DNA from: an uncultured Alistipes sp.
GTDB taxonomy: Bacteria; Bacteroidota; Bacteroidia; Bacteroidales; Rikenellaceae
Length of the DNA stretch: 64,000 nt
Direction: 5' to 3'
Assembly (NCBI RefSeq): GCF_963931675.1
Contig: NZ_OZ007039.1
Location: 149,501 to 213,500 of the forward strand
Position numbers and translations under genes: made by a program. Shown here piece by piece: positions 5,508 through 45,583 of this stretch (position 1 is the stretch's first letter; each line of letters starts with the position of its first letter). The notes under the pieces are model-generated. The model saw only the letters and a list, made by a program, of their open reading frames with translations. It did not search any database and was not told the origin of the DNA.

Positions 5508-5515
5508 CCCAAGAA

Positions 5516-5708: not shown

Positions 5709-5779
5709 TATGACAGAGAGCAACCAGGAAAGCCCGGAGAAATGCGGCACGCATCCGGATATGGCATCAGGGAACAGGC

Positions 5780-6611: not shown

Positions 6612-6612
6612 G

Positions 6613-7158: not shown

Positions 7159-7568
7159 CGGTTGAATTCCATGTAACTTTGTAAAATAATCGTGGCGGAA
7201 ATCTTGTCCACCAACGCCTTGTCGCGGCGGGCCATCCGACCGATGCCGCTTTCGAGCATCGTGCGGTGCGCCAGCACCGAGGTGAAACGCTCATCGTGGA
7301 AAACCACCTCCTTGTCGGGCCACCTCTGTTGCAAACGCCTTGCCAAAGGCTCGATGAAACGCCACGTCTCCGACGGCGTGCCGTCCATCTGCAAGGGCTT
7401 CCCCAAGACGACGGTCGAGACATCCTCCCGCGCGAAGTAGTCCGCCAGCCAGCGTTCCAGATCCTTCGTCGCAACGGTCTCCAGACCCCCGGCAATCAAC
7501 CGCAGAGGATCGCTCACCGCGACCCCCGTGCGTTTCGTACCGTAGTCGATGGCCAGAATCCGTCCCAT
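7155..7568 (-). CDS. ruvX: Holliday-junction resolvase-like protein RuvX (YqgF)
   Basis: 137 residues of the YqgF/RuvX RNase H-fold family, implicated in pre-16S rRNA 5' processing and proposed as a Holliday-junction resolvase. Seen: ILAIDYGTKRTGVAVSDP with the first acidic residue, VVLGKP, FHDERFTS, and a C-terminal DKISATIILQSYM. Normal length. It lies 21 bases after glyS and overlaps def, forming a translation and RNA-processing operon. Confidence 0.93.
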   Translation of the reverse strand: MGRILAIDYGTKRTGVAVSDPLRLIAGGLETVATKDLERWLADYFAREDVSTVVLGKPLQMDGTPSETWRFIEPLARRLQQRWPDKEVVFHDERFTSVLAHRTMLESGIGRMARRDKALVDKISATIILQSYMEFNR

Positions 7569-7589
7569 TCCGGAAGAGGTCGTGCGCGG

Positions 7590-29716: not shown

Positions 29717-30271
29717 AAAGACCGTAAGTTAAAATATTCCAGCATCGGTATTTCTGTCAATCCCGCATTGTGGGATTTCGAGAAAAACAGACCGCGTAGA
29801 AATTGCCCGAATCGCCTGCATATCGAACGCCTTATTGCAGATAAAATAGAAGCCTATCGTACAAAGATGATTGAATTGCAGGCCGAGAAAAAGGAGTTTA
29901 CCGCGACATCGTTACATGAAAGAGTTGCAGACAAGACTACGAAACGCACCGTTGGCGAGGTGTTCCTATCACAAATTGAGAACTTAAAGCAAACGGGGCG
30001 AACGGGCTATGCGCTATCGCACAGAGAGGTCTACAATTCTTTGGTGAAATTCAACGGACATCTGAACATCTACTTTTCAGACATCGACACGGTTTGGTTG
30101 AAACGCATCCGCAGAGGCACGGAATCGTCTACAACGATAGGAAATTAAATCGAGAATCCGCCAACCATTGCCAGTTTTTGCGCCGGTTCAGGTCCGTTTC
30201 ACGGCGGAGCAGCATCAACGACACCTACGTGCGTTCAAATAAAAGACGGATTTTCCCATCAATACAAACTC

Positions 30272-30307
30272 AAAAAACGAGGCCCGCTCATGTTATGAGC
30301 GGGCCTC
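30272..30307 (-). terminator. Terminator of the left-hand Sus operon
   Basis: Perfect 12-bp stem (GAGGCCCGCTCA 30279-30290; TGAGCGGGCCTC 30296-30307), followed on the minus strand by G and six T, 22 bases beyond the DUF4302 stop. Confidence 0.95.
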
Positions 30308-30328
30308 ATCGCATTACGACTTTCCCAA

Positions 30329-31660
30329 TCAGAAAAGCGCTCCGTGGAAAGCGGCAGGTGCTTCACCGTCAACCAAAACGACCTGACCCATGGAATAGGA
30401 ACCGAAAGTAACCGGCGACCAGTCGATCTTGAAGGTTTTACCCGACCAGAACAGCGGCAAGGCCGTATAAGCACTCGCAAAGAGAGCCCCGTTGCCGTAG
30501 GCATCGTCATCGAACGACATCCCGGTAACCGTAAACTGATCCTCCGTTTCGTTGAACGACAGGGAGTAGGTAACCCAGCCCTGATAACCGCTGCAATCGT
30601 ATACCATCATCATGCGCGGAGCTCCTCCATCCGTCATGTAAAACTCCAGATCCAACTCCTGCAACTGCAACCTGTATCTCTGGGCAATCGACGTATAGGC
30701 CTGGACGAACAGATAGGCAAACTCATTCTCCGAAGCGGAATACGACGGATACATGTCCAACATCGAGGCCAGAACGGTATAAGTCTTATTCGGGCCCAGC
30801 ATGTAATGGAGCGGAATAACCGGATCGGCCTGCGCATCGACAGTCTGCGGAGTCCCCGCAACCTCGGCCTCGAATGCCGACGCCGAAGCATCCCAGGCAA
30901 AACCGGTCAACGTCTCCCCGGCAACCTCGATCGGCTCCAGCAGGCTGATGTTCCCCTCCAGGTCGGTCAGCGTATAACCCGAAGACTGGATCACATTCCC
31001 CTCCGGATCCACATACGAAATGTCGATCGACCGTGCATTGAGAATCAGGCTCACCTTCGTATCGCCGACCATGAAGTAGCAATACTCGCCCGAACGGTAA
31101 CGCTGCGCATTGGTGAGCACATCCATCAAACCGCCCGATTTCACCGAAGCGGACTCTTCGGCCGTGGCCTGCCGCAGCGTCGCCGCAACCCGGTTGACAC
31201 GGCCCGTCAGCGAGAAGACGCCATCCGTGAAGGTCTCGACCTCGAACTCGAAATCCGTCTGAAGACCCATGTTTCCCGAACCGTGGCTGATGCCGTCGTC
31301 CGGATCGTTGATCACGGCCAGATACGAATAGGTGTCGAACGACAGCGTCGGGCGCTGCAGCGAACGAATATTGTAGGTCGAAGTCTTGGGAACCCCGTTC
31401 CACTGCGGATAATAGAGGTTGTCCGTATACATCGTCACCATGTTGTCATCGGTGAACTCCATGTAGAAACGGTAGTTGCCCTCGCTGGTCATCACGTCGA
31501 AAATCCAGCCGTTCTCGGCAGCGGCAAGCTCCGAAATGTAACCCTTGATCACCGCATCGACCCGCGCATCGGCACTGCCGTCCATCGTCACCGTCGACTC
31601 GCACGACGTCAGGAACGACAGGCCGAAGAGTAATGCTATTATGCTGATAGTTTTTTTCAT
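30329..31660 (-). CDS. DUF4302 lipoprotein
   Basis: 443 residues with lipoprotein signal MKKTISIIALLFGLSFLTSC (Cys20). The mature sequence (GYISELAAAENGWIFDVMTS, YRFYMEFTDDNMVTMYTD, STYNIRSLQRPTLSFDTYSYLA) fits the DUF4302 family of surface lipoproteins found beside SusC/SusD pairs and HExxH lipoproteins. Biochemical role unknown. Last gene of the four-gene operon, 24 bases after its neighbour. Confidence 0.85.
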   Translation of the reverse strand: MKKTISIIALLFGLSFLTSCESTVTMDGSADARVDAVIKGYISELAAAENGWIFDVMTSEGNYRFYMEFTDDNMVTMYTDNLYYPQWNGVPKTSTYNIRSLQRPTLSFDTYSYLAVINDPDDGISHGSGNMGLQTDFEFEVETFTDGVFSLTGRVNRVAATLRQATAEESASVKSGGLMDVLTNAQRYRSGEYCYFMVGDTKVSLILNARSIDISYVDPEGNVIQSSGYTLTDLEGNISLLEPIEVAGETLTGFAWDASASAFEAEVAGTPQTVDAQADPVIPLHYMLGPNKTYTVLASMLDMYPSYSASENEFAYLFVQAYTSIAQRYRLQLQELDLEFYMTDGGAPRMMMVYDCSGYQGWVTYSLSFNETEDQFTVTGMSFDDDAYGNGALFASAYTALPLFWSGKTFKIDWSPVTFGSYSMGQVVLVDGEAPAAFHGALF

Positions 31661-31684
31661 GTTCTGTTGTTTTTTGAATGGAAC

Positions 31685-32629
31685 TTACTCCGTCGGCGGC
31701 GTCGCTACAACCGTGGCAACGGCCTCCTGGACATAACTTTCAAGACCGCGCTCGCCCGTCACCTCATTGTCCAGGAACTGAATGCCCCAGGAGTTGAGCA
31801 GATAGGTCTCCACGATCGACAGCTTCTGCTGGAGGGCATTGTAGGCGTCGGTCTCTTCGGACTCCTGGGCGACAGGAAGCACCGTCTCGTCGAACCACTG
31901 CTTGCCGTAGACCAGAATCATCGAGAGAACCTCCACGAAATCCTCGTCCTTGCTGCTCATGGCATAGTTGCTGACAAAACCGCGGGCATAGGATTCCGGA
32001 TTATAATCCTGAGACTGGTTCCGGTCGTACTCCTTCCATCCCGTCGCGCTGTAAAAGCCCGCACTGATGTCCTGATACGTCTTGTCGAACATCACCGTCT
32101 GGTGCAGAATATGGGCAAACTCGTGCAGAATGGTATGCAGGGCCTGCTTCAAACCCGCCTCGTCGGTCGGATCGAAATTGTTGGCATTGAGCAGCAGGAT
32201 CTTGCGGGCGCCCTCGGCCTGGCCCAGCTTGATCGAACCGTTCTGGTATTCGGGGCTGCCGACCAGCACCACCTTCTTCGGAGACATCCGCTTGATGAAG
32301 TCCACGCCCGCGGCCTGGACATAGGGCTTGAACCACACGTCGCGGATCGCCGCCATCATGGGTTTCACGGCATCGTACTCCACGGGCACCAGCCGCGAGG
32401 CAAGCGTCGTGTACATCTGGGCCGCGTCCCAGCGATAAACCACTTCGATGTTGTAGGGCTCGGTGAAATTCTCATAGAGCCATTTGTCCAGTTCGTTGGC
32501 CGCCTCTTCCGTTCCGCCCAGACCGGGAATTACGATATCGTCGGCAATCGTCTCCTTTTCCCGACACGAGAGCGTCCCGAGGGCCAATCCCAGCAACAGG
32601 ACACCATATAGAATCTTGGTCTTTTTCAT
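31685..32629 (-). CDS. Substrate-import-associated zinc metallohydrolase lipoprotein
   Basis: 314 residues; lipoprotein signal ending TLSC (Cys22). Zinc site HEFAHILH at residues 169-176 (HExxH plus a third His), followed by a Met-rich loop and DFVEVLSMIL with a further acidic residue. Predicted cell-surface peptidase that trims a proteinaceous substrate before uptake through the adjacent SusC/SusD. The start at 32629 begins the signal peptide; it is 29 bases after SusD. Confidence 0.85.
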   Translation of the reverse strand: MKKTKILYGVLLLGLALGTLSCREKETIADDIVIPGLGGTEEAANELDKWLYENFTEPYNIEVVYRWDAAQMYTTLASRLVPVEYDAVKPMMAAIRDVWFKPYVQAAGVDFIKRMSPKKVVLVGSPEYQNGSIKLGQAEGARKILLLNANNFDPTDEAGLKQALHTILHEFAHILHQTVMFDKTYQDISAGFYSATGWKEYDRNQSQDYNPESYARGFVSNYAMSSKDEDFVEVLSMILVYGKQWFDETVLPVAQESEETDAYNALQQKLSIVETYLLNSWGIQFLDNEVTGERGLESYVQEAVATVVATPPTE

Positions 32630-32658
32630 ACTCTTTCTTTTTGCTTTTTCTGTCATGA

Positions 32659-34359
32659 CTAACTCCAGGGCTGAGGAATATGGTCGTAAGGATTCTTCTC
32701 AAGGCCCGAAAGCGATGCGGTCTCCGGGATCTGAATCACACGGCGGTCGTCGTCGGGCGTCAGCGTGCTGCTCTCGCCCGAAAGCATCGTGTGCGTAACC
32801 GGAATGTTCCAACGCAGGATGTCGAACCAGCGCATTCCCTCATAGATGTACTCCATGCGGCGGGCATCGAGTACGGCCAGAACCAGGCCCCGCTGCAGTT
32901 TGCCCTCGTAGGTCGAAAGATCGGCCTTAAAACGCCCTGCATTGAAATTGGAATTCATGTAGTGATCCGACAGCGTCAACACATCGGTGTAATAGTCTAC
33001 GACCTTGTCGCGCGAATAGTAATACTGAGCGACATTGGTGCTCTGAACCCGCCGCTGGGAGAACATCGTCAGATCGGCCAGGGCCAGGTCGTATTCGCCC
33101 GTCATGGCGTAGGCCTCGGCACGTGCCAGCAGCGCCTCCTCCAGCCGGAACAGGGCTACCCGGACATACGGCTGGCCCGTATTGGCGTTGATGTTGGACA
33201 CCTTGAAGTCCTCATAGATCTTGGGCAGGAAGCCCGGGGCATCCGCCGGAGCGCCATTGAACCCGTAGGTCGGCATGTGCCAGTTCACGCCCGACGCATT
33301 CGCGCCCAGAATCGCATTGAACTCCTTGCCCCCGTGCGTATAACGGGTATAGGCCGTCGACATCGCGGTTCTGTTGAGCAGCGAGTAGGGTTCCGCAGCC
33401 AATATGACGTTCGCATTGTCGGCATTGCTAAAGGCCAGCTGCAACTCCGTCGATCCCGAATACATGCTCATCGCGCTTCTCCAGTCGAACAGGTTGCTCA
33501 CGCAGAACAGCGATGCGAAATCATTGGGATGCGGGATCTTGACCTCCGAACCGTCGGCATTGAGCAGGGGCTCCTGCTGCTGATTCACGATACTGGCCCA
33601 GGTCGTCGGCTGCGGGATCAGCTGGGAGGCATAGGAGATCACCGTGGGATAATCCCGCTCGAAGAGCGCGACACGCAGCGCCAGCATCCGGGCCGCATCG
33701 AGCGTAAAGTGGAACTTCGGCTGCTCGAAATCCGCGGACGTACCCACCCCTTTCAAGCCTTCGGAGAGGTCGTCCTTCACCTTGGCCAGCGTCGCCGAAA
33801 CCGTTTCACGATCATACTGTTTGTTGACCACATCCTCCGGCTCCGTCACATAGGGGATACCCGGATTGGTTCCGCGGTTGGCCTCGTCGAAGAAGTCCGT
33901 GAAGAGCGTCAGCAGGCAGAAGTGCGCATAGGCCCGGCAAAGCAGCGCCTCGGCACGGTAGGGTTCGCTGCCCTTGGGGTTCCCCAGTTTGTCGAGCGCC
34001 TCCAGGGCATGGTTGGCCGCCGCAATCGCCCCGTAGCAGGAGGTCCAATAGGCTTCGGCATCGTCGGAGTTCTCCATGCTGGGGTACTCGTCCCAGCGAT
34101 AGGCCGTATAAATGAAGGCAAAACTGGAACTCGGCTGCGTTCCGTCCATCGTGGCGCCGTGGTCGGCCATCCCGTCGCAGCGGGGTTCGAGCCACGTCGC
34201 ATAGAATTTTCCCGGATAGGCCGTCACGAGCAACGCCTTGACCTTCTCCAAATTGTCTATCTGTGTCCGGTTATCGGGCATCTCATCGAGGAATTTGTTG
34301 CAGGAGGCAAAAAATACCGCCGCGGAAACGACCGACAACACTGCTATCAATTTTCTCAT
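32659..34359 (-). CDS. SusD/RagB family outer-membrane lipoprotein
   Basis: 566 residues, lipoprotein signal MRKLIAVLSVVSAAVFFASC (Cys20). Substrate-binding lid of a SusCD transporter on the cell surface. TPR-like helices (ALLCRAYAHFCLLTLFTDFF; AEAYAMTGEYDLALADLTMF) and the C-terminal RRMEYIYEGMRWFDILRW segment typical of SusD. 29 bases downstream of SusC. Confidence 0.95.
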   Translation of the reverse strand: MRKLIAVLSVVSAAVFFASCNKFLDEMPDNRTQIDNLEKVKALLVTAYPGKFYATWLEPRCDGMADHGATMDGTQPSSSFAFIYTAYRWDEYPSMENSDDAEAYWTSCYGAIAAANHALEALDKLGNPKGSEPYRAEALLCRAYAHFCLLTLFTDFFDEANRGTNPGIPYVTEPEDVVNKQYDRETVSATLAKVKDDLSEGLKGVGTSADFEQPKFHFTLDAARMLALRVALFERDYPTVISYASQLIPQPTTWASIVNQQQEPLLNADGSEVKIPHPNDFASLFCVSNLFDWRSAMSMYSGSTELQLAFSNADNANVILAAEPYSLLNRTAMSTAYTRYTHGGKEFNAILGANASGVNWHMPTYGFNGAPADAPGFLPKIYEDFKVSNINANTGQPYVRVALFRLEEALLARAEAYAMTGEYDLALADLTMFSQRRVQSTNVAQYYYSRDKVVDYYTDVLTLSDHYMNSNFNAGRFKADLSTYEGKLQRGLVLAVLDARRMEYIYEGMRWFDILRWNIPVTHTMLSGESSTLTPDDDRRVIQIPETASLSGLEKNPYDHIPQPWS

Positions 34360-34388
34360 AACTGTCTCTTTGTTGTTTCAATAATGAC

Positions 34389-37300
34389 TTAGAATCCGAG
34401 GTTCAGCGAAAGCGTGAACTGCGTGGTGGTAGGCATGGCCACACCTCCCGTATTGAAGAACTCGGGATCCTGGCCCTTGAGCGCCTTGTCCGCATAGATC
34501 AGCCACGGGTCCTTGACCGTCAGACGCAGGCTTGCGGTCCGGAAGAAGCGGCTCTTGCTGACCCACGCCGGGGAGAAATCGTAATTGAGCGAAATGGTCT
34601 TCAGACGGATGAAATCACCCTTCACGACCCGAGCCGTCGAATAGTTGTAGTTGACGTAGGGATAACCCACGTCGAGCGAGATCGACTGGTGCACCCAGTC
34701 CGAAATCGACGGCGAGATGTTGTCGCCCGTCATCAGGAAGCGGTTCTTGAATTCGTTCGACATGGCGTCCAGATCGCTGTACTGGGCGTTGTAGGCGGGC
34801 GTCAGACGGATCTTGTTCCCGGCCTGGTAGGTGAAGAAGGCGTTGAACGTGAAGTTCTTGAAACGAACCGACGTATTGAAACCGCCCGTGTATTTCGGGT
34901 CCACCGGGCCTTCGTATTTCAGGAAGTCGGTCTCCGTACCCTGCATGTTCACATCCTGGCTCTCCACACCGTCGGCATTGATGAACAGCGGAATACCGGT
35001 CTGGGGATCGAGCCGCGTAAAGGGAATCGAGAAGAGGCTGTTCACCGGATAGCCCTCCTTGTTGCCGCCCTCGCTCTTCACCAGATCGTAAACCGACGGT
35101 TGGTCCTTGGCGTTCTTGATCGTATTCTCCGAATAGCCGAACGTGAAGTTTGCGGTCCAGGTCACGTTCTTCGTCCGGATGAGCGTACCGCCCAGCGTGA
35201 TGTCCACACCGTGCGAGTCGAGGTCGGCGTAGTTGGCCAGTTTCCACGACTGCCCGCCGATTCCCGAGGTCTTGATATAGGCGATCAGGTCAAAGCCCTG
35301 ACGGTTGAAATAGTCGATCGAGAAGTTGAGCCGGTTGTCGAAGAGCGTGAGGTCGAAGCCCGCATTGAACTGGTAGCTCTTCTCCCACGTCAGTTCGGAG
35401 TTGGCCAGCGCATCGATGCTGATCTGGTTCTCGCTCCAGCCCGGACGGTATACCTGGGAGCTGTAATAGACGGCTGCGGCATTCGACGCATTGGGCATAC
35501 TGGCCGTCAGACCGTAACTCAGACGCGCGCTCAGCACATCGATCCACTCCACATCCTCCAGGAAGGGTTCGTTCTGCAGGTTCCACTTGGCACCGAAGTT
35601 CCACGTAGGAAGCCACCGGGCGCTCGAACTCGAACCCAGCGCATTACTTCCGTCGTAACGCACCGTGGCCGAAACGGAGTATTTCCGGTCGAAGGCGTAG
35701 TCGGCATTGGCATAGAAGGCCACGAAACGATCCTGATAGGTCGTCGCCGTGAAGAGATCCAGCTGGCGGTCGTTCATCATGCGGTAGAACAGCGGGTTGT
35801 TGAAGACCACGCCGCCCATGTTGTACTGATAACCGGCCTGGATCGCCGTCTCCTCGTCACGCTCCAGGTACTTGATCTGCGTACCGGCCAGGATGCTCAG
35901 CTCATGCGTGCGGGCATTGTTCCAGACCTTATTGTAGGCGAACGAGGCGCGCACCTCGTAGTTGAGCATCGTATTGTTGGTCGTGTTATAGAAACCACCC
36001 TGCTCCATGACCGAAACCGGCTCGGCATTCGGGTCGTCGGGATTGGTCCACAGGTAGCGGTTCCGCTGGCGGATCGTCGAGTTGCCGTCGGCACGGTAGG
36101 CTCCGGCGACGTTCGACTCCTCGGTAATCCGGTGAACCTGGTCGCTCTTGACATAACGGAGCATTCCCGTGAAGTTGAACCGGAGCCCCTTGACGATGTT
36201 GTAGTCGAACTGTCCCTGCAGTTTGGCATCCATCACATTGAGCTGTATCTTGTTCTCCTGCAGCTCTTTGAGAATGTTGAACGGAGCGTAGTTCATCGTC
36301 ACGTACTCCAGATTACCGTCGTTGTCGTAGGGGCGGACCGTCCGGCTCGTATTGAGCGCATAGCTGAAGGGGTTGATGTCGAAGTCACGCGACCACTCGC
36401 CGCTCACCACGTCGATCGACCGCTGATAGGATCCCGGCGCCTCCTGCTGACGCAGCGATGCCACGGCCTGGAAGCCGACCGAGATCTTGCGGCTGATGTC
36501 GTAATCGTTGCGGAAGTTGAGCGTATAACGGCTCACATTGTCGGCAACCGACCATCCGGCGTCGTTCATGAAACCGATCGAGGCGTAGGTCCGCGACTTT
36601 TCGGTACCGGTCGAGATGCTCAGCGAGTGCTCCTGAAGCAGGTTGTGCGTAAAGAGAAGATCGAACCAGTCGGTATTCGCCTTGGCATACTGCATCAGGA
36701 AGGCATTCCGCGCCTCCCGCGTATTGGCCAGTCCGAATCCGGTTTCGGGGTCGTAGGCCGCAATGGCATTGTACATCAGTCCGTAGACACCCGAATTCGA
36801 GGTGTTGACGATATCCTGATTGAGGAGGCCCTTGCGTTCGAACTCCGAATAGACGGCCATCTGGTCGGCGGAGTTCATGATGTCGAAATTCGAATAGCGC
36901 GGTTTGGTACGGATCGTGAAGTTGCCCGTATAGGAGATCCGGGGAGCGCCCTGCTTACCTTTCTTGGTGGTGATCACTACGACACCGTTCATGGCGCGGG
37001 CACCGTAGAGAGCCGTTGCGGCGGCATCCTTCAGGATGTCGAACGTCTCGATATCCGAGGCGTTGATACCGGCCACGGAGGATCCGAGCAGCGTCGTGGG
37101 GTCACCGCTCGAAAGCTGGTCGTTGGAGATGTTGACCACATCCTCCAGGACGACACCGTCCACGACCCAAAGGGGTTTGTTCTCACCGCTGAGCGACGTC
37201 ACACCACGGATACGGACCTTGGGGGCCGAACCGAACGTACTGGAGACGTTCTGGACCGAGACACCGGCTACCTGGCCTTCGAGCATACGGCTCACGTCGG

Positions 37301-37706
37301 TCACACCGGCGATAGCTATATCATCGGCACTGATCTTGACCGAGGATCCCGTAAAAGTCTCCTTCTTGGCATTTTTGAAACCCGTCACGACGACATCGTC
37401 GATTGCGGTGGTCGATTTTTCGAGTTTCACGTCCACACGGGTCATACCCTTCGACACGGCGATCACCCGTTCCTGATACCCGAGGAACGAGACGATGATC
37501 GTTCCGGGGGTGGAAGGCAGCGAGATGGTAAACGCACCTTTCGTATCGGTGACGGTTCCGCTGGAGGTTCCCTTCACAGTCACGGTAGCACCGATAACCG
37601 GCATTCCGTCTTCGGAATCCGTCACGCTACCGGACACCTTAACCTGTGCAAAAGCACTCGACAAGCTCAGGTTAATGATGATTAACAGCAGTAAAAATTT
37701 TCTCAT
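34389..37706 (-). CDS. SusC/RagA family TonB-linked outer-membrane protein (left system)
   Basis: 1105 residues. TonB-dependent importer: signal peptide (MRKFLLLLIIINLSLSSAFA), CarboxypepD-regulatory-like domain about 24-105 (VSGSVTDSEDGMPVIGATVTV), TonB-box-like IDDVVVTGF, plug (VRIRGVTSL, LWVVDGVV, ILKDAAATALYGARAMNGVV) and a beta-barrel ending in LSLNLGF. The start at 37706 begins the signal peptide. The four-gene operon has tight spacing and a terminator, but I find no promoter box in its leader in the present DNA orientation. Confidence 0.97.
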   Translation of the reverse strand: MRKFLLLLIIINLSLSSAFAQVKVSGSVTDSEDGMPVIGATVTVKGTSSGTVTDTKGAFTISLPSTPGTIIVSFLGYQERVIAVSKGMTRVDVKLEKSTTAIDDVVVTGFKNAKKETFTGSSVKISADDIAIAGVTDVSRMLEGQVAGVSVQNVSSTFGSAPKVRIRGVTSLSGENKPLWVVDGVVLEDVVNISNDQLSSGDPTTLLGSSVAGINASDIETFDILKDAAATALYGARAMNGVVVITTKKGKQGAPRISYTGNFTIRTKPRYSNFDIMNSADQMAVYSEFERKGLLNQDIVNTSNSGVYGLMYNAIAAYDPETGFGLANTREARNAFLMQYAKANTDWFDLLFTHNLLQEHSLSISTGTEKSRTYASIGFMNDAGWSVADNVSRYTLNFRNDYDISRKISVGFQAVASLRQQEAPGSYQRSIDVVSGEWSRDFDINPFSYALNTSRTVRPYDNDGNLEYVTMNYAPFNILKELQENKIQLNVMDAKLQGQFDYNIVKGLRFNFTGMLRYVKSDQVHRITEESNVAGAYRADGNSTIRQRNRYLWTNPDDPNAEPVSVMEQGGFYNTTNNTMLNYEVRASFAYNKVWNNARTHELSILAGTQIKYLERDEETAIQAGYQYNMGGVVFNNPLFYRMMNDRQLDLFTATTYQDRFVAFYANADYAFDRKYSVSATVRYDGSNALGSSSSARWLPTWNFGAKWNLQNEPFLEDVEWIDVLSARLSYGLTASMPNASNAAAVYYSSQVYRPGWSENQISIDALANSELTWEKSYQFNAGFDLTLFDNRLNFSIDYFNRQGFDLIAYIKTSGIGGQSWKLANYADLDSHGVDITLGGTLIRTKNVTWTANFTFGYSENTIKNAKDQPSVYDLVKSEGGNKEGYPVNSLFSIPFTRLDPQTGIPLFINADGVESQDVNMQGTETDFLKYEGPVDPKYTGGFNTSVRFKNFTFNAFFTYQAGNKIRLTPAYNAQYSDLDAMSNEFKNRFLMTGDNISPSISDWVHQSISLDVGYPYVNYNYSTARVVKGDFIRLKTISLNYDFSPAWVSKSRFFRTASLRLTVKDPWLIYADKALKGQDPEFFNTGGVAMPTTTQFTLSLNLGF

Positions 37707-38066
37707 GCATAAATGGTTTAAAGGTGAGTGTACGAGTCCATAATGCCCGAAGGATGTATTCGGGTTCTTCAAGTTGAATGGGATAAAATGTTATTTCGCT
37801 GTTTTTTTAAAATAAAAAGTCCACAGGACGGGCATAACCGCCGGTTCCCTGATTGTGAGTATGTTGACACGACGATCCGCATAAATCCGCAAATTGTTGA
37901 TTGTGAGCGGACAATCGATTTTTCCGATCCGAAGATGCTGGTGTTCCGTTACCGGGAGGTAACTCCGGACAAGGGATTATTCCTCTGAGAATATGCTCTT
38001 TGGATTTGACCATGGGAGATTCCGTCGTTACTTAAACGTTACCTTTAGGGATCGAAATCGTAGGTT
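37707..38066. other. Gap between the left SusC and the recombinase
   Basis: Holds the left 21-bp inverted repeat (37804-37824). The 97 bases between the repeat and the SusC start, and the sequence just inside the repeat, contain no leftward TAnnTTTG box. On the plus strand TACCTTTA at 38040-38047, 20 bases before the recombinase ATG, is a likely -7 box for the recombinase. No gene is called here. Confidence 0.65.
37804..37824 (+). repeat. Left arm of 21-bp inverted repeat
   Basis: Exact reverse complement of 39542-39562; on the minus strand it begins GTGGACTTTTTATTTT. It lies in the leader of the left SusC operon. Confidence 0.95.
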
Positions 38067-39305
38067 ATGAGTATGAGAAACACGTTTAAAATCCTGTTTT
38101 ACGCCAAGAAAAATGCCCCGCTGCGGAATGGGAATATTCCGATCATGGGGCGCATCACCCTCAACGGCGAACGCACGCAGATCTCAACCCGCCAATCCGT
38201 CCCGCTCAAGCTTTGGAATGCCAGTCTGGGACGTGCCGTCGGACGGAGCAGCCAGGCGCTGCTCGTCAATGAGCAACTCGACCGGATCCACTATCGCATT
38301 GAACATTGTTACCACATGTTGCTTTGCGAACAGGTCCCGGTAACTCCCTGCATGATCAAGGAGCGCTATTGGGGAATCGATCAGCGAAAACACGGCCTGC
38401 TGGACTTTTTCCGCAGGCACAACGACGAATTTTTCCGCATGGTCGGAATCTCCCGAAGCAAGACGACCTATTATAAATACAGAAGCGTATACCGTCATCT
38501 TGAAAGGTTCATTCCGGAGCATTATGGGTGCAACGACATACATTTCAAAGAGATAGACCGCAAATTCCTGGCGGATTTTCACCGTTACATGATGTTGGAA
38601 TGCAACCGCAAGAAGAATACGACCTGGGTCTATATGATTGCCTTCAAACATATCCTCATGCTGGCGCGGGAACACGGATACATGGATCGTAATCCGTTCG
38701 CCGACTACAAGTTGAGTTGCGAATCCGTCGCCCGGAACTACCTTTCCATGCCGGAACTGCGGAGCATCATACGCCTCAGACCCGAGTCGCCGACCCTGCA
38801 ACTGATCCGGGATGCCTTTCTGTTCAGCTGCTTCACGGGACTCTCCTATATCGATCTCCGCAGGCTGACGCCCCGGCACCTCCAAAGGACACGCGATTGC
38901 CTGTGGATCCATACGTTCCGGCAGAAAACCGGCGTTCCGGTCCATATACGGCTGTTCGACGTGGCCTGTGCGATCGTCCGGAAATACCTGCCCGAGGAGT
39001 GTGACCGTCGGATATTCGACCTGCCGACCAACGGTTGGTGCAATGCGTGCCTTGAGCGGCTGATGGCCATGGCGGGCATCAGCCGTCGGATTACGTTTCA
39101 CGCGGCCCGCCACACGTTCGCCACCACGATTACGCTGTCGCAGGGGATGGCAATCGAGACGATCAGCGAGTTGTTGGGACATAAAAGCGTGCGGACGACA
39201 CAGATCTACGCAAAAATCACCCCCTCGAAACTCGAAAGGGAGATGATGCTTCTTTCGAAAAAGATCGACAGGCTCTATCAGGATCCGGTTCCGGTTGAAA
39301 TCTGA
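38067..39305 (+). CDS. Tyrosine-type site-specific recombinase (candidate invertase)
   Basis: 412 residues. N-terminal arm/SAM-like region typical of Bacteroidetes integrases (FKILFYAKKNAPLRNGNIPIM), core-binding helices, then the catalytic domain: Lys of RQKTG (about 287), HAAR (His345, Arg348), GHKS (His372) and nucleophile Tyr381. The usual first Arg (TGLR) is Ser260 in FTGLSYIDL, as in CTnDOT-type integrases. It stands alone between two SusC operons, with no mobilisation or phage genes, and inside a perfect inverted repeat, so it is more likely a DNA invertase than an element integrase. Confidence 0.93.
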   Translation: MSMRNTFKILFYAKKNAPLRNGNIPIMGRITLNGERTQISTRQSVPLKLWNASLGRAVGRSSQALLVNEQLDRIHYRIEHCYHMLLCEQVPVTPCMIKERYWGIDQRKHGLLDFFRRHNDEFFRMVGISRSKTTYYKYRSVYRHLERFIPEHYGCNDIHFKEIDRKFLADFHRYMMLECNRKKNTTWVYMIAFKHILMLAREHGYMDRNPFADYKLSCESVARNYLSMPELRSIIRLRPESPTLQLIRDAFLFSCFTGLSYIDLRRLTPRHLQRTRDCLWIHTFRQKTGVPVHIRLFDVACAIVRKYLPEECDRRIFDLPTNGWCNACLERLMAMAGISRRITFHAARHTFATTITLSQGMAIETISELLGHKSVRTTQIYAKITPSKLEREMMLLSKKIDRLYQDPVPVEI

Positions 39306-39316
39306 TCATCGTCCGA

Positions 39317-39338
39317 GGGCCTGGAAAGGGCCTGGAAA
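39317..39338 (+). repeat. Two 11-bp repeats after the recombinase
   Basis: GGGCCTGGAAA twice in tandem (39317-39327, 39328-39338), then GGGG. Rest of 39306-39507 is AT-rich with no gene. Confidence 0.7.
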
Positions 39339-39507
39339 GGGGTGGAACCTGGAGAAAAAAAGGCGAAAAAGGGAATTTACGGCCCAAAAACCGCGAAAAT
39401 GCCGGTTTCAAATTATAACTTACCATCCCCAAACACTGTCAAAATGCAATGTATTTTTACAATAAACGAGCAATAATATCACCTTGCTTGATTTTTTTAA
39501 CCGTTAA

Positions 39508-39539
39508 TTTGTAAAGCATTCCGCATTTATCTACCTTTG
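39508..39539 (+). promoter_or_regulatory. Consensus promoter inside the invertible segment, now driving the right SusC
   Basis: TTTG at 39508-39511, a 20-base spacer and TACCTTTG at 39532-39539: a perfect match. The -7 box ends two bases before the right inverted repeat, and the ATG of the right SusC is 41 bases further. Confidence 0.85.
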
Positions 39540-39541
39540 CC

Positions 39542-39562
39542 GTGGACTTTTTATTTTAAAAA
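39542..39562 (+). repeat. Right arm of 21-bp inverted repeat
   Basis: GTGGACTTTTTATTTT followed by five A; exact reverse complement of 37804-37824. It overlaps the expected transcription start of the right SusC operon. Confidence 0.95.
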
Positions 39563-39580
39563 CAATTAAAATTAACGCTT

Positions 39581-42500
39581 ATGGTAAGAAATTTCCTACT
39601 ATCGTTAATTGCCATTGTGGGGGGGGGAGTGTTGCTCGCCTCCGCGCAAAGTAAGCAAGTAACCGGTACGGTTGCCAATACGGACAATCGACCGATCGCC
39701 GGAGCTACGGTTCTGGTGGAGGGTACGACTGTCGGTACGACAACCGATGCCAACGGACGTTTTTCAATCTCGGCTCCCGCTGACGGTACACTGAAAATCT
39801 CGTTCATCGGCTACCAGACCCAAACAGTATCAGTTGCCGGCAAGACCCAAATCAACGTATCCTTGCAGGAAGATACCCAGGCCATCGACGATGTGATTGT
39901 CGTGGCATACGGTACCGCCAAAAAGGAGTCCTTTACGGGATCCGTCAGCGCAGTATCCGGGGAGGAACTCAAAAAATTGCAGGTCTCCAACGTTTCTAAA
40001 GCTCTCGAAGGTCTTGTTCCCGGTGTTCAGGTAGCCTCCCAAACAGGACAGCCAGGATCGAGTTCCACCATCTCGATCCGAGGTATCGGCTCGATCAACG
40101 CTGGAAGCGACCCGCTCTATATCGTGGACGGAGCTCCGTACAACGGCAGCATCGCAGCCATCAATCCGGCGGATATCGAATCCATCTCCGTTTCGAAGGA
40201 TGCCGTGTCAACCGCACTGTACGGTTCCCGTGCCGCAAACGGTCTGGTGATCATCACCACCAAAAAAGGTAACGCCACCCGCACAAATGTCCAGTTCGAC
40301 GCTCGCGTGGGTGTCAACTCCCGCGGTATCGGCAATTACGACATCATGACCTCTCCCGACCAGTATCTGAAGACCTTTTATCAGTATCTGGTCAATACGG
40401 AAGGGGATGGAGCTACGGCAGCAAGCGTCATCTTGAATCGCTTGGGATACAATCCCTATATTTCGGCCACTCCCGACAAACTCATGACCGAAGACGGAGA
40501 ACTCATCTCCACCCAGCGCCGTTATACGGATGACTGGAGCGACGAAGCGCTTCATGCCGGTCTGCGCCAGGAGTACAATGTCAGCATCTCGGGTGGAAAT
40601 GACAAACTCAAGCACTTCATGTCTCTGGGTTATCTCAACGACGAGGGTATCATCAAGAATTCAGACTACTCGCGCTATTCGGGACGTGCCAATGCCTCCT
40701 ACCAGGTCAACAAATGGGTCGACCTCTACGGAAATCTCGCCTATTCGCACGGAGAACAGAATGCACAGATGATCTCCTCGCTAGCCAATTACAACAACAC
40801 GTTCATGTTCATCCAGAGCATCGCCCCGATCTACCCGGTCTACGCCTACGACAAGGACGGAAATCTGATCCGCGACGAGAACGGAGGTCGGATCTACGAC
40901 TTCGGAGACGGCACCTATGGAACCCGCTCCTGGGGTAAGGGACAGAACATCGTGGCTACGGATAAGGCCAACAAGAATGAAACACTGACCGATCAGATCA
41001 GTGCCCGTGCCGGTATCAACCTGAATATCCTGTCAGGGTTGAAATTTTCGGCCAACCTCTCTTATGACCTGACCAATCAGCAGAATGTCAGTTTCATGAC
41101 GCCTTCGTACGGCGACGCCAAGACCTACAACGGAACAGGAACCCGCTATACGCTCCGTGATCAGACCCTGACAGGCAACCAGTTGCTTACCTATGAAAAG
41201 AAGATCGGCAATCACGCCTTCAGCGTCATGGCAGGTCATGAGTCCTATAAATGGGAATACCGCTATTTCACGGGAACCAAGCAAAACTACTACGACCCGG
41301 AAAACAGCGAATTCAGCAATGCCATCTCCATGCAGAATCTCAACTCGTACACTTACGACGAAACGATTGAATCGTGGTTCGGAAGCATCCATTACGAATA
41401 TGGCAATCGCTATTACCTGGATGCCAATATCCGTGGTGATGGTTCGTCCCGCTTTGCCAAGGAGAACCGTTGGGGTGTATTCTGGTCGGTTGGAGCCAAC
41501 TGGCGGCTTTCGCAGGAAAATTTCCTCAAAGACGTGGCATGGATCAACAATTTGGCGCTCAAAGTCTCTTACGGTACGACCGGAAACAACCAGATTCCGA
41601 ACTACTATCCCTACAAGGATCAGTATTCCGTAAGTCCCAACGGGGATGAATTCTCCGTCACCCAGGTCTATTGGGGTAATCCGGATCTGACGTGGGAGGT
41701 TTCCAACAACCTCAATGCAGGTATCAACGCATCGCTGTTCGACGCACGGCTCAACCTCAACGCGGAATATTTCCACAAGAAAACGAGCGACATGCTTTAT
41801 GACATGCCGTTCTCGCCGTCAACCGGCATTCCCAGCAAGCCGATGAACATCATGACCATGATCAACAAGGGCTTCGAGTTCACGCTCAGCGCCGTTCCTC
41901 TGCGGACGAAAAACACGTCGCTGGAGGTAATCCTGACCGGAACGACCTATACCAACTCCGTGACGGATCTGCCGGCCGACAAAGTGGAAACGGGTATCAC
42001 CCACCTCGCCTATTACAACATCAAGGACGGCGGCTCGGTATGGGACTTCTACGGGCTCAAATCGGCCGGAGTGGATCCCGAAACCGGAGATGCCCTTTAC
42101 TGGCACCGTGAAACCGGAGAAAACGGAGAAGAGACGCTGAGCAAGGTAACCTATGAGAATGTGGATGCCGTAGGTGACAAATTCTATCTCGGTACGGCCA
42201 TTCCCGATTTCATTGGCGGCATCACGGTCAACTTCAACTGGAAAGGGCTGGATTTCTCGATTGCCGGAAACTACCAGATCGGCGGCAAGGTGTACGATGC
42301 GATGTACAATGGCCTGATGCACGCCGGCACTTCGGACGGCGCCAACTGGCACAAGGATATTCTGAATGCCTGGACCCCCGAAAACACCAACACCAACGTG
42401 CCCAAACTCAACGGCGGCACCAATCAGACCCAGGCTCTGGATCCCTATATGATCAGCGCCTCTTACTTCAACCTGCGCAACATCACCCTGGGATACACCT

Positions 42501-42682
42501 TGCCGCAAAAGTGGGCAAAGGCCATCAAGATGTCGAGCGTGCGCATTTATGTTGCGGCGGACAATGTGGCCTTGCTGTCGAAACGAAAGGGTCTTGATCC
42601 GCGCCAGTACATTCAGGGACAGTCGCAGGCAAACTACTCGGTTCTGCGCACCGTTTCTGGCGGCGTTACCATCAACTTTTAA
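39581..42682 (+). CDS. SusC/RagA family TonB-linked outer-membrane protein (right system)
   Basis: 1033 residues. Signal peptide MVRNFLLSLIAIVGGGVLLA with SAQ cleavage region; CarboxypepD-regulatory-like domain (VTGTVANTDNRPIAGATVLV); TonB-box-like IDDVIVVAYG; plug (ISIRGIGSINAG, PLYIVDGAPY, VSKDAVSTALYGSRAANG); long barrel ending VSGGVTINF. Forms a pair with the SusD 13 bases downstream. There is no extra enzyme gene in this operon, so the substrate cannot be guessed. A nine-G run sits in its signal-peptide codons. Confidence 0.97.
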   Translation: MVRNFLLSLIAIVGGGVLLASAQSKQVTGTVANTDNRPIAGATVLVEGTTVGTTTDANGRFSISAPADGTLKISFIGYQTQTVSVAGKTQINVSLQEDTQAIDDVIVVAYGTAKKESFTGSVSAVSGEELKKLQVSNVSKALEGLVPGVQVASQTGQPGSSSTISIRGIGSINAGSDPLYIVDGAPYNGSIAAINPADIESISVSKDAVSTALYGSRAANGLVIITTKKGNATRTNVQFDARVGVNSRGIGNYDIMTSPDQYLKTFYQYLVNTEGDGATAASVILNRLGYNPYISATPDKLMTEDGELISTQRRYTDDWSDEALHAGLRQEYNVSISGGNDKLKHFMSLGYLNDEGIIKNSDYSRYSGRANASYQVNKWVDLYGNLAYSHGEQNAQMISSLANYNNTFMFIQSIAPIYPVYAYDKDGNLIRDENGGRIYDFGDGTYGTRSWGKGQNIVATDKANKNETLTDQISARAGINLNILSGLKFSANLSYDLTNQQNVSFMTPSYGDAKTYNGTGTRYTLRDQTLTGNQLLTYEKKIGNHAFSVMAGHESYKWEYRYFTGTKQNYYDPENSEFSNAISMQNLNSYTYDETIESWFGSIHYEYGNRYYLDANIRGDGSSRFAKENRWGVFWSVGANWRLSQENFLKDVAWINNLALKVSYGTTGNNQIPNYYPYKDQYSVSPNGDEFSVTQVYWGNPDLTWEVSNNLNAGINASLFDARLNLNAEYFHKKTSDMLYDMPFSPSTGIPSKPMNIMTMINKGFEFTLSAVPLRTKNTSLEVILTGTTYTNSVTDLPADKVETGITHLAYYNIKDGGSVWDFYGLKSAGVDPETGDALYWHRETGENGEETLSKVTYENVDAVGDKFYLGTAIPDFIGGITVNFNWKGLDFSIAGNYQIGGKVYDAMYNGLMHAGTSDGANWHKDILNAWTPENTNTNVPKLNGGTNQTQALDPYMISASYFNLRNITLGYTLPQKWAKAIKMSSVRIYVAADNVALLSKRKGLDPRQYIQGQSQANYSVLRTVSGGVTINF
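39619..39627 (+). repeat. Nine-G homopolymer in the SusC signal-peptide codons
   Basis: Codons 13-16 of the right SusC (Val-Gly-Gly-Gly) contain nine consecutive G. A one-base slip would shift the frame within the signal peptide and abolish the protein. Confidence 0.9.
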
Positions 42683-42695
42683 ATAGCAGACAAAC

Positions 42696-44207
42696 ATGAA
42701 AGCAAATCATATCAAATACCTTCTCGTGCTGGGCACGGGGGCTCTGATTGCATCTTGTTCAAGTGATTTCCTGGAAACCGAGCCCACGAACGTAGTGTCG
42801 GGGGATCGGCAGAACGAGATACTCCTCGAAAAACCCGAGATGCTCGCCTCCATCATCAGCGGTGCCTATACGACTATTTACAGCGGTGATCCCTATATGA
42901 GTTCATCCCAGGATGACTATGGAATGTCCTCTTACAAGATCGCAACGGATGTCATGTGCGATGACATTGCCTTCTTCATCAACTCCGGAGGGTTCGCCTC
43001 CGACCAACAGTTGATCTTCCGGGAGCCGGATTATCGGCGCCCCGTTTCGATGTGGCGGCAGTTTTATCACATCGTATCCTCGGCGAACTCCGTTATTAAG
43101 GTTCTGAAGGATGTCGAGGGTACCAACAATGACCTCGATGCGATGTTGGGTCAGGCGTATGCTTTGCGGGGATGGGCCTATTATTGGCTCATCAACATGT
43201 GGCAGCAACCCTATGATGCCAATCCCGACGCATTGGGCGTTCCGCTGATTCTCGAAGAGGAATCCGAGAGTATCTCCGGACGGGCTCCCGTCAAAACTGT
43301 GTATGCACGCATCGATACCGACCTGTCCAAAGCCTGCGACCTGCTCAAAGACAAGCAACTCGGCAATACGGCCCTCAATGAATACGCCGCATCGGGAATC
43401 TATGCCAATGTGCTGATGTTCCTGGGTCGTTACGATGAGGCGGCCACGCGGGCTGAATATGCTACCAAAGGTGGCCGACTGGCCGGAGCCGATGAGTTGC
43501 TGGCCGGAATGAACAGCGTCTCGATGAGCGAGGTGATCTGGGGTTATGCCGTCACCGAGGAGTGGAATCTTGTCTACGGATCCTTCATGTCCCACATGAA
43601 TCCTTATGTCGACGGATATGCGCCTCCCGGATACTTCCCGAAACTGGGTGCCAGCGCCCTGGTTGACAAAATCGATGCAAACGACATCCGCAAAGGATGG
43701 TTCGGATACAGCGAGACCCTCAATACCAACAAGTTCGACTTCTCCCAGATTGAGCAGGCCGGGTTCGCGGCCTATGTTCCCAACAAGTTTCTCTGCCCGA
43801 ACAGTTTCCTGTGCGATCTGATCTACATGCGTGTAGCCGAGATGTATTTCGTCGCAGCCGAGGCCCACTACCTCAACGATGATGAAACGAATGCCCGCAA
43901 ATGGCTCACCGACGTCATGTCGACCCGTATTCCGGGATACGATGCATCCGGCAAGTCGGGAGATGCGCTCTACGAGGAGATTTGCTTCCAGAAGCGGGTT
44001 GAGACATGGGGTGAGGGGTGCCGCATCTTCGATGCGAAGCGCCGCAACGAAACCATCGACCGAACGAAATCCACCAACTTTGCAGCATCTCTGGCCAGCA
44101 CGGATGCCATGACATACAGCGCCCGGGACTATCGGATGATCTACAAGATTCCGACCTTAGAGATGGAGAACAACACGGAAATTTCCTCGGATCAGCAGAA
44201 TCCTTGA
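42696..44207 (+). CDS. SusD/RagB family outer-membrane lipoprotein (right system)
   Basis: 503 residues; lipoprotein signal MKANHIKYLLVLGTGALIAS with Cys21. SusD fold: LGQAYALRGWAYYWLINMWQQPY, YASGIYANVLMFLGRYDEA, a VAEMYFVAAEAHYLNDDE segment and a C-terminal EICFQKRVETWGEGCRIFDAKRRN. Surface substrate-binding partner of the adjacent SusC; operon ends with a strong terminator. Confidence 0.95.
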   Translation: MKANHIKYLLVLGTGALIASCSSDFLETEPTNVVSGDRQNEILLEKPEMLASIISGAYTTIYSGDPYMSSSQDDYGMSSYKIATDVMCDDIAFFINSGGFASDQQLIFREPDYRRPVSMWRQFYHIVSSANSVIKVLKDVEGTNNDLDAMLGQAYALRGWAYYWLINMWQQPYDANPDALGVPLILEEESESISGRAPVKTVYARIDTDLSKACDLLKDKQLGNTALNEYAASGIYANVLMFLGRYDEAATRAEYATKGGRLAGADELLAGMNSVSMSEVIWGYAVTEEWNLVYGSFMSHMNPYVDGYAPPGYFPKLGASALVDKIDANDIRKGWFGYSETLNTNKFDFSQIEQAGFAAYVPNKFLCPNSFLCDLIYMRVAEMYFVAAEAHYLNDDETNARKWLTDVMSTRIPGYDASGKSGDALYEEICFQKRVETWGEGCRIFDAKRRNETIDRTKSTNFAASLASTDAMTYSARDYRMIYKIPTLEMENNTEISSDQQNP

Positions 44208-44236
44208 TGGAAATTAAGTCCACACCGAAATTCAGA

Positions 44237-44274
44237 ATCACCTCTGTTGCAACGGCAACAGGGGTGATTTTTTT
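44237..44274 (+). terminator. Terminator of the right Sus operon
   Basis: 14-bp stem (44237-44250 and 44255-44268, one G-T pair) with AACG loop and seven T. Confidence 0.93.
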
Positions 44275-44359
44275 GTAGACTTCCTCGATATGAAATTTGC
44301 AGACAACCTTAAAAAAGGGTCTACAGGGAAAAGAAAGATTCATATTTCTGTTTTTTTCG

Positions 44360-44367
44360 TAAATTTG
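44360..44367 (+). promoter_or_regulatory. -7 box of the flavodiiron protein gene
   Basis: TAAATTTG, a perfect -7 match, 23 bases before the ATG; -33 element not evident. Confidence 0.5.
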
Positions 44368-44389
44368 CGCAGAACAAAACTGGACGTTT

Positions 44390-45583
44390 ATGGCAATCAC
44401 TCAAATCGCACCCGGCATCCACTATGTCGGCGTCAACGACCGGACCACAACCCGTTTCGAAGGGCTCTGGTCGCTGCCCCAGGGCGTTTCGTACAACGCC
44501 TACCTCGTCGTCGGCGAAAAGGTCGCACTCATAGATACCGTCGAGGAGGCTTTCGGCAGCCGCCTCGAAGCCAATATCCGCGAAATAATCGGCGACCGCA
44601 AGGTCGACTACCTCGTCGTCAACCATATGGAACCCGACCACTCGTCGTCGATCACCGCCCTGCGGCGCATCTACCCCGACCTGCAGATCGTCGCCAATGC
44701 CAAGGCCCTGCAGATGATCGAGGGTTTCTACGGCCTCTGCGGCAACACGGTCGAGGTCAAGGAGGGCGACACGCTCGATCTGGGCGGCAAAAGCCTCTCG
44801 TTCCGCATGATCCCGATGGTCCACTGGCCCGAAACGATGGTTTCGTGGTGCCCCGAGGAGCAGGCGCTCTTCTCGGGCGACGCCTTCGGATGCTTCGGGG
44901 CCCTCGACGGAGGCATCACCGATTCCGAGGTCGATCCCGAACGCTACTGGGACGAGATGCGCCGCTACTACGCCGCAATCGTCGGCAAATACGGCGCTCC
45001 GGTGCAGAAGGCGCTCCAGAAACTCGCCGGGCTCGAAATCCGAAGCATCTGCCCGACCCACGGTCCCGTCTGGCAGGAGCAGATTGGCCGGGTGGTTGAC
45101 CTCTACGACCGCATGAGCCGCTACGAAGGGGAACCGGGCGTGGTCATCGCCTACGCCTCGATGTACGGGAACACCGAGCAGCTGGCCGAGCGCATCGCCC
45201 GCGAACTGGCCGCCGAGGGGGTGCGCAACATCCGCATCTACAACCTCTCGTATGCCGATCCGTCGGTCGTGCTGCGCGACATTTTCTGTTTCGACACGCT
45301 GCTGGTCGGAGGGCCCACCTACAACGCCGGGCTCTTCCCGCCCGTAGCCGAGTTGCTCGACAAACTCGCCGCACGCTGCATTCCGCAGCGGCGCTTCGGC
45401 TGGTTCGGCTCCTTCACGTGGGCCGGAGCCTCGGTCAAACTGCTGGGAGAGTTCGCCCAGAAGATGAAGTGGGAAACGCTCGGCGCACCCGTGGAGATGA
45501 AGCAGGGTTTCTCCCCGAAAATGTACGACAGCTGCCGGGCCCTGGCGCATGACGTCGCCGAAAAGTTCCACGGCAAAGCCTGA
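44390..45583 (+). CDS. Flavodiiron protein (FprA family A-type flavoprotein)
   Basis: 397 residues. Reduces oxygen and/or nitric oxide to protect anaerobes. N-terminal metallo-beta-lactamase-like domain with the diiron ligands HMEPDH (NHMEPDHSSS), the MVHWPETM histidine, SGDAFG aspartate and CPTHGPVW histidine; C-terminal flavodoxin domain with the FMN loop SMYGNTEQLA and a GPTYNAG loop. All ligands are present. Followed after six bases by ugd, probably co-transcribed. Confidence 0.95.
   Translation: MAITQIAPGIHYVGVNDRTTTRFEGLWSLPQGVSYNAYLVVGEKVALIDTVEEAFGSRLEANIREIIGDRKVDYLVVNHMEPDHSSSITALRRIYPDLQIVANAKALQMIEGFYGLCGNTVEVKEGDTLDLGGKSLSFRMIPMVHWPETMVSWCPEEQALFSGDAFGCFGALDGGITDSEVDPERYWDEMRRYYAAIVGKYGAPVQKALQKLAGLEIRSICPTHGPVWQEQIGRVVDLYDRMSRYEGEPGVVIAYASMYGNTEQLAERIARELAAEGVRNIRIYNLSYADPSVVLRDIFCFDTLLVGGPTYNAGLFPPVAELLDKLAARCIPQRRFGWFGSFTWAGASVKLLGEFAQKMKWETLGAPVEMKQGFSPKMYDSCRALAHDVAEKFHGKA

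What the first reader, a model, noticed from the sequence alone, without database searches (positions are those of the whole stretch)
37804..39562. Self-encoded invertible promoter that may toggle between two SusC/SusD uptake operons
Seen: a perfect 21-bp inverted repeat (37804-37824 and 39542-39562) encloses a tyrosine recombinase gene and a single perfect promoter (TTTG 39508-39511, N20, TACCTTTG 39532-39539) whose -7 box ends two bases from the right repeat. It faces the right SusC gene. The left SusC operon, on the minus strand, has the other repeat in its leader and no TAnnTTTG box of its own. Inversion would place the same promoter at about 37827-37858 facing left. Inferred: only one of two importers is expressed at a time, switched by the recombinase in the same segment. 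Promoter inversion is known in Bacteroides; one segment choosing between two flanking Sus operons while carrying its own recombinase is a neat and possibly undescribed arrangement.
Basis: partly seen in the sequence, partly recalled or inferred. Interest (0 to 1): 0.95.

Follow-up and report, generated by a model that had tools for sequence, protein, structure and literature searches.

The report
Self-flipping switch between two importers
In a gut bacterium of the genus Alistipes, a 1.76-kb DNA segment that carries its own recombinase gene and one predicted promoter lies between two nutrient-importer operons, sits in the opposite orientation in a sister species, and is predicted to switch on only one of the two importers at a time.

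Summary
Perfect 21-bp inverted arms (37804-37824, 39542-39562) enclose a tyrosine recombinase gene and one Bacteroidota-type promoter match facing the right SusC. The arms have no other copy in the genome within 3 mismatches. In a sister Alistipes species (G183) the same two operons flank the same segment inverted, with breakpoints at the arms: the promoter faces the left SusC and the right SusC lacks one. G203 and G168 are a second inverted pair. In 19 of 19 loci with SusC on both sides, the better promoter match is at the recombinase 3' end (0-1 mismatches in 18). Arm pairs co-vary within loci. At 12 loci sharing a chromosomal neighbour, 7 segments point towards it and 5 away (at least 4 changes on the tree). 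One species has a different SusC in the right bay. I read it as an inherited, self-encoded (Hin-like) inversion switch choosing between two SusCD importers. Not shown: switching within a strain, expression, and that this recombinase does the flipping; two close relatives have broken recombinase genes and may be locked. SusC/SusD inversion and Hin-type segments are known; this combination was not found in the papers searched.

The parts
37804..39562 (.). invertible segment, arm to arm (1,759 bp)
   Evidence: found inverted in G183 relative to both flanks: window 30108-37824 direct 98.2%, 37804-39562 inverted 91.8%, 39540-45500 direct 94.2%
37804..37824 (-). left arm, in the leader of the left SusC operon
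   Evidence: perfect 21-bp inverted repeat of 39542-39562; two copies only in the genome within 3 mismatches
39542..39562 (+). right arm, in the leader of the right SusC
38067..39305 (+). tyrosine recombinase gene (412 aa), inside the segment
   Evidence: Pfam PF17293, PF13102, PF00589; relatives in 42 of 180 genus genomes, own included, at E <= 1e-90; K287, H345, R348, H372, Y381 invariant in 13 sequences (their catalytic role is recalled); dN/dS 0.10-0.18
39508..39539 (+). predicted promoter TTTG-N20-TACCTTTG, facing the right SusC
   Evidence: perfect consensus match; same place in 19 of 19 loci with 0-2 mismatches
38037..38047 (+). CGTTACCTTTA upstream of the recombinase ATG, candidate element for its own expression
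   Evidence: TACCTTTA present in 8 of the 19 loci printed (window, G179, G183, G067, G070, G072, G007, G009); no TTTG box seen at the usual spacing; function inferred
39581..42682 (+). right SusC (SusC_R), operon ON in this orientation (predicted)
   Evidence: TIGR04056 823 bits
42696..44207 (+). right SusD (SusD_R)
   Evidence: PF14322, PF07980
34389..37706 (-). left SusC (SusC_L), operon without promoter match in this orientation
   Evidence: TIGR04056 633 bits; 99.4% identical in G183, where the promoter faces it
32659..34359 (-). left SusD (SusD_L)
   Evidence: PF14322, PF07980
31685..32656 (-). substrate import-associated zinc metallohydrolase lipoprotein
   Evidence: TIGR04549, PF15890
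30329..31660 (-). DUF4302 protein, last gene of the left cluster
   Evidence: PF14135
44390..45583 (+). chromosomal neighbour used as orientation anchor (metallo-beta-lactamase-fold plus flavodoxin domains)
   Evidence: PF19583, PF00258; flanks 12 of 19 loci

Best explanation
The 1,759-bp segment 37804-39562 is bounded by perfect inverted arms and encodes a tyrosine recombinase that is predicted to flip it, so that its one outward-facing predicted promoter would drive either the right SusC/SusD pair or the left SusC/SusD/metallohydrolase/DUF4302 operon but never both; the same segment is found inverted at exactly these arms in a sister species. Shown by sequence: the arms, the enclosed recombinase gene, the single promoter match, the inverted state in relatives, several orientation changes at one chromosomal site, and a different SusC in one bay of one relative. 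Inferred: that this recombinase acts on the flanking arms, that the -33/-7 match is the working promoter, that the promoterless operon is silent, and that switching goes on within one population.
For: Arms beyond chance and private to the locus. G183: inversion of the same segment between the same two operons, breakpoints at the arms. G203/G168: SusCs 95.5% and 96.7% identical on swapped sides. Promoter match at the recombinase 3' end in 19 of 19 loci: 12 perfect, 6 with one mismatch, 1 (G180) with two; other side never better than two (4 of 19 at two) (mononucleotide-shuffled stretches reach <=1 mismatch in 4.2%). Within-locus arm pairs match better than re-paired ones: sum 479, reached in 0 of 2000 permutations. 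Orientation against the shared neighbour: 7 towards, 5 away, at least 4 changes on both the recombinase tree and the neighbour-gene tree. Recombinase under purifying selection (dN/dS 0.10-0.18).
Against: No reads: both orientations were not seen in one strain. No expression data. The recombinase gene of G183 has an in-frame stop at codon 162 and that of the same-species G177 is split over two contigs that run on into other sequence. In 3 of 19 loci (G073, G070, G168) the left leader shares a longer exact stretch with a right leader of another clade than with its own, and in 4 more (G072, G007, G009, G173) it ties. 7 of 33 recombinases on the same branch lack the two-operon layout and 2 lie outside the promoter segment.
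Confidence: 0.8

Rival explanations
1. The inversions are rare evolutionary rearrangements and each lineage is now fixed; the locus is not a reversible switch within a population.
For: Recombinase genes are broken in G183 and G177. Assemblies show one orientation per genome. In some loci the repeats run far into the SusC genes (350 bp in G171 = L100), where homologous recombination could act.
Against: At least 4 orientation changes among 12 loci, no more clustered than shuffled labels (357 of 500 shuffles as low; only 12 rows, so low power). Intact, selected recombinase in the window, G179, G067 and others. Arms of only 21-23 bp in the window's clade fit a site-specific enzyme better than homologous recombination (inference).
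Confidence: 0.12
2. The segment is inverted, but by another recombinase acting in trans; the enclosed one is a passenger.
For: The genome has 48 Phage_integrase matches. In Phocaeicola vulgatus a promoter still inverts although its neighbouring recombinase is defective (passages of PMC13114119).
Against: The arms have no other copy in the genome. Arm sequence follows the recombinase clade. The recombinase lies inside the segment in 19 of 19 two-SusC loci of this layout.
Confidence: 0.05
3. It is an ordinary ON/OFF promoter for the right operon; the left operon has its own promoter elsewhere.
For: The left leader is longer (97 nt from arm to ATG) and different; a weak or unusual promoter there could be missed by a consensus scan.
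Against: No box better than 3 mismatches in the left leader. In G183 the same promoter stands in front of the left operon. The promoterless side recurs in 19 of 19 loci.
Confidence: 0.03

Closest known systems
Hin / fljBA flagellar phase switch of Salmonella (H segment)
   Same: Recombinase gene and an outward promoter inside one inverted segment flanked by short inverted sites (layout recalled; history and serine type of Hin seen in passages of PMC11868660)
   Different: Hin is a serine recombinase; here a tyrosine recombinase. In Hin one side is an operon with a repressor (recalled); here each side is a complete SusCD operon read directly.
Tsr0667 and SusC/SusD shufflons of Bacteroides fragilis
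   Same: Tyrosine recombinase, DNA inversion, SusC/SusD output (passages of PMC4747536; the 2009 paper itself is not held)
   Different: Tsr0667 is described there as a global enzyme for three SusC/SusD clusters and nine other regions; here the arms have one pair in the genome and the enzyme is inside the segment.
Mpi / capsule invertible promoters and Tsr19 (BF2766) of B. fragilis
   Same: Inverted repeats around a promoter of a surface-molecule operon (passages of PMC4747536 and PMC12632263)
   Different: ON/OFF of one operon, enzyme outside the inverted segment and acting on several or distant sites; here one promoter is shared by two operons.
Sister layout in Alistipes G198 and G144
   Same: Recombinase of the same branch; two divergent SusC genes with similar arms, promoter match on one side only (right in G198, left in G144)
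   Different: Recombinase lies outside, downstream of one SusCD operon; the presumed invertible part is about 0.5 kb.

Membership tests
Bacteroidales invertible promoter | promoter of the -33 TTTG / -7 TAnnTTTG type between inverted repeats | tested here: met
   (consensus recalled)
Bacteroidales invertible promoter | both orientations exist | tested here: met
   between species: G183 against window, G168 against G203; not within a strain
Bacteroidales invertible promoter | orientation sets transcription of the flanking operon | not testable with these tools
   needs RNA data
Hin-type self-encoded inversion segment | recombinase gene inside the inverted segment | tested here: met
   19 of 19 two-SusC loci of this layout
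Hin-type self-encoded inversion segment | serine recombinase of the Hin family with an enhancer | tested here: not met
   tyrosine recombinase domains; works like Hin but is not a member; enhancer not looked for
Tyrosine recombinase family | C-terminal catalytic domain with conserved His/Arg/Tyr | tested here: met
   PF00589 48.1 bits; H345, R348, H372, Y381 invariant in 13 sequences; a Ser (S260) stands where the first Arg is usual, as recalled for IntDOT
Tsr0667-type SusC/SusD shufflon | one enzyme, many sites with a shared motif across the genome | tested here: not met
   only two arm copies within 3 mismatches
SusC/SusD importer | adjacent SusC and SusD genes | tested here: met
   both sides

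The most novel reading that the evidence does not exclude
Alistipes carries an inherited two-bay importer switch: a self-encoded segment with one promoter enforces either/or expression of two SusCD systems at a fixed chromosomal site, flips often enough that its orientation keeps no visible phylogenetic signal, and lets the bays trade in new SusC operons through their shared 5' ends.
Probability: 0.6. Interest if true: 0.78.

Novelty: new variant of a known kind. Interest (0 to 1): 0.68.

Why it matters
SusCD complexes are main nutrient portals of gut Bacteroidota, and SusC can be a T-cell antigen (passage of PMC10939037). A single-locus, self-contained either/or switch would split a clonal population into two feeding or antigenic types with no repressor and no outside enzyme. 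It could be moved to E. coli as one DNA piece for testing and read in public metagenomes from two short junctions. It would show how Alistipes, for which the papers searched here gave no described inversion switch, diversifies its surface.

Tried and rejected
Chance inverted repeat: rejected. Stray integrase of a mobile element: rejected, since the two-operon layout with matched arms recurs in 19 loci and the same neighbour gene flanks 12 of them. Repeat as a by-product of SusC duplication: in the window's clade the two SusC leaders share only the 21-23 bp arm. A first impression that the promoter lay at the recombinase 5' end in L010 and L011 (note) was wrong: those loci are in contig orientation; oriented by the recombinase it is at the 3' end. 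Leader hairpin of the left operon: no better than shuffles (z 0.14). Other switches of this layout in the own genome: in 39 further stretches around recombinases none had arms of 18 bp or more with a perfect outward box; L210 has 18-bp arms and a one-mismatch box, L211 13-bp arms and a perfect box. Not examined in context: 6 of the 51 places (36-39% identity); only 10 candidates were scored in many genomes, so its counts are lower bounds. Solved structures gave no substrate for either importer; the recombinase has only distant relatives there.

Literature: nine searches bear on the arrangement and one on the left operon. None listed a paper that I recognised as describing it; I looked at passages of six papers, none read whole. 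Nakayama-Imaohji 2009, Lan 2023 and Jiang 2019 are not held, so absence in print is not established.

Full report
What is there. A perfect 21-bp inverted repeat, 37804-37824 and 39542-39562, bounds 1,759 bp that hold a 412-aa tyrosine recombinase gene (38067-39305, +) and, at the right end, a perfect Bacteroidota-type promoter match (TTTG-N20-TACCTTTG, 39508-39539; consensus recalled) facing the right SusC. To the right lie SusC and SusD; to the left, on the minus strand, SusC, SusD, a zinc metallohydrolase lipoprotein and a DUF4302 protein. The repeat is beyond chance: 500 shuffles of the region gave at most 15 bp and 30 shuffles of the window at most 18 bp, and the arm has two copies only in the 3.38-Mb genome within 3 mismatches.

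The inverted state exists. Of 180 genomes of the genus (own included), 42 have a recombinase match at E <= 1e-90, at 51 places (lower bounds, since only 10 candidates were scored in many genomes). I looked at 45 of these 51 places, the window included, and at one weaker one (G005), in up to 20 kb of context. The nearest are the same-species G177 (99% over 352 residues), G179 (94%), G183 (92%) and G067 (83%). Against the window, G183 (contig length equal to CALUNH010000004.1, uncultured Alistipes sp.) matches directly over 30108-37824 (98.2%), inverted over 37804-39562 (91.8%), and directly again over 39540-45500 (94.2%). The breakpoints are the arms. In G183 the promoter match now precedes the left SusC (99.4% identical to the window's), and the right SusC (97.1%) has the arm but no promoter match. 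G203 and G168 are a second such pair: their SusCs are 95.5% and 96.7% identical and on swapped sides.

One promoter match per locus, at the same end of the segment. Nineteen loci have SusC genes on both sides. Combining the scan from the ATG with the scan from the arm edge, the box at the recombinase 3' end is perfect in 12, has one mismatch in 6 and two in 1 (G180). On the other side no locus is better than two mismatches (4 of 19 at two: G067, G007, G203, G151). Mononucleotide-shuffled stretches reach one mismatch or better in 4.2% of 7,600 trials. Four more loci are cut by contig ends (G177, G163, G189, G013), and G201 has a SusC on one side only. The other half of G177 is on contig C60 with the promoter match, the arm and SusC_R (99.6%), so this same-species genome has the window's orientation.

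The arms behave like recombination sites. They differ between clades, yet left and right arms resemble each other within each locus. Summed longest matches of true pairs (479) were not reached in 2000 random re-pairings. Against this, 3 single loci (G073, G070, G168) match a leader of another clade better and 4 (G072, G007, G009, G173) tie, partly because leaders are alike across the genus.

Orientation changes repeatedly at one chromosomal site. The gene right of the window's locus (44390-45583; metallo-beta-lactamase-fold and flavodoxin domains) flanks 12 of the 19 loci (in the other 7 it was not in the stretch fetched). The recombinase points towards it in 7 (window, G179, G067, G070, G073, G168, G007) and away in 5 (G183, G203, G171, G072, G009). 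At least 4 changes are needed on the recombinase tree and 4 on the tree of the neighbour gene (3 forced by well-supported branches), and the label is no more clustered than when shuffled (357 of 500 shuffles as low in each; 12 rows give little power). So the site is inherited while the orientation is not visibly so.

Exchange of cargo. G067 keeps SusC_L (98.6%), the promoter, the arm, about the first 165 bp of the right SusC gene and the same right neighbour (92.9% in DNA), but its right SusC is 34% identical to the window's, with no match to the window's SusD_R at E <= 1e-15; among the SusCs compared the closest is the one in the promoterless bay of G007 (74.6%). One SusC type stands in the promoter-facing bay in G013 and G168 and in the other bay in G203, G180 and G173 (65-97% identical). 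SusC_L has dN/dS 0.02-0.05, SusC_R 0.08 and the recombinase 0.10-0.18.

Limits and contrary results. The G183 recombinase gene has an in-frame stop at codon 162; the G177 one is split over two contigs, each running on into other sequence, which I take for an insertion. These two may be locked, in opposite orientations. In G171 the repeat runs 350 bp into the SusC genes, where homologous recombination could also act; in the window's clade the arms are 21-23 bp. The branch of 33 recombinases (support 100/100) holds the 19 two-SusC loci, the 5 incomplete ones, 2 (G198, G144) that sit outside a ~0.5-kb promoter segment between divergent SusCs, and 7 without the layout; the 24 other recombinases in the tree have none of it. 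Assemblies show one orientation per genome, and no reads were available.

Mechanism (inference). The recombinase pairs the two arms and inverts all between them, its own gene included. Since the only promoter match lies at one end and points outward, one SusCD operon is read at a time. The recombinase would need its own promoter inside the segment; TACCTTTA 19 bases before its ATG (38040-38047), present in 8 of 19 loci, is a candidate, though without a TTTG box at the usual spacing.

Comparison. It works like Hin (enzyme and promoter inside the inverted segment; layout recalled) but has a tyrosine recombinase and would drive two operons directly. Promoter inversion, also near SusC/SusD genes, is well known in Bacteroidales (passages of PMC12632263, PMC4747536, PMC10939037); the enzymes described there act on many regions (Mpi, Tsr0667) or on a local and a distant promoter (Tsr19). 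Nine full-text searches listed no paper that I recognised as describing this arrangement or an Alistipes switch; several key papers are not held. I call it a new variant of a known kind.

Noticed in passing
L085 (G198) 1790-2328 and L086 (G144) 2761-3310, coordinates after orienting by the recombinase: Second layout: a ~0.5-kb segment between two divergent SusCs with near-identical signal peptides, arms like CTTTTTATTTAYAAAACAC, promoter match on the right in G198 and on the left in G144; the recombinase lies downstream of one SusCD operon, next to a response-regulator-like gene (label by eye).
   Followed up: partly
L076 (G177:C61) and L197 (G177:C60): The recombinase gene of the same-species genome is split near codons 338-349, both contigs running on into other sequence; looks like an insertion with a short shared stretch at the break.
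   Followed up: partly
L075 (G183:C4): The recombinase in the inverted locus has an in-frame stop at codon 162; the switch may be frozen with the left SusC facing the promoter.
   Followed up: partly
L210 4931-5149 (own genome C1:1760930-1761148): 18-bp inverted arms 219 bp end to end beside another recombinase, with a one-mismatch outward promoter box: candidate short ON/OFF switch.
   Followed up: no
L043 (G034:C4), recombinase-oriented 1839-4490 and 4642-7674: Two divergent SusC ORFs without N-terminal signal regions lie about 150 bp apart: recombination inside the genes or an assembly artefact.
   Followed up: no
L198 (G009:C28) 2793-3385: A second promoter-arm-SusC start on a 3.4-kb contig of G009, 99% identical over 594 bp to that of G007: a second copy or contamination.
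   Followed up: no
39317-39346: G-rich tandem repeat (GGGCCTGGAAA) between recombinase stop and promoter; more copies in the same-species G177.
   Followed up: no
34389-37706: SusC_L is unusually conserved (98.6-99.7% in four relatives, dN/dS 0.02-0.05) while its SusD is 91-97%.
   Followed up: partly
28430-29593: IS256-family transposase gene left of the left operon.
   Followed up: no
L200 400-1574 and L238 1525-2699 (own genome): Two 1,175-bp stretches with 27-bp inverted ends, probably copies of one insertion sequence.
   Followed up: no
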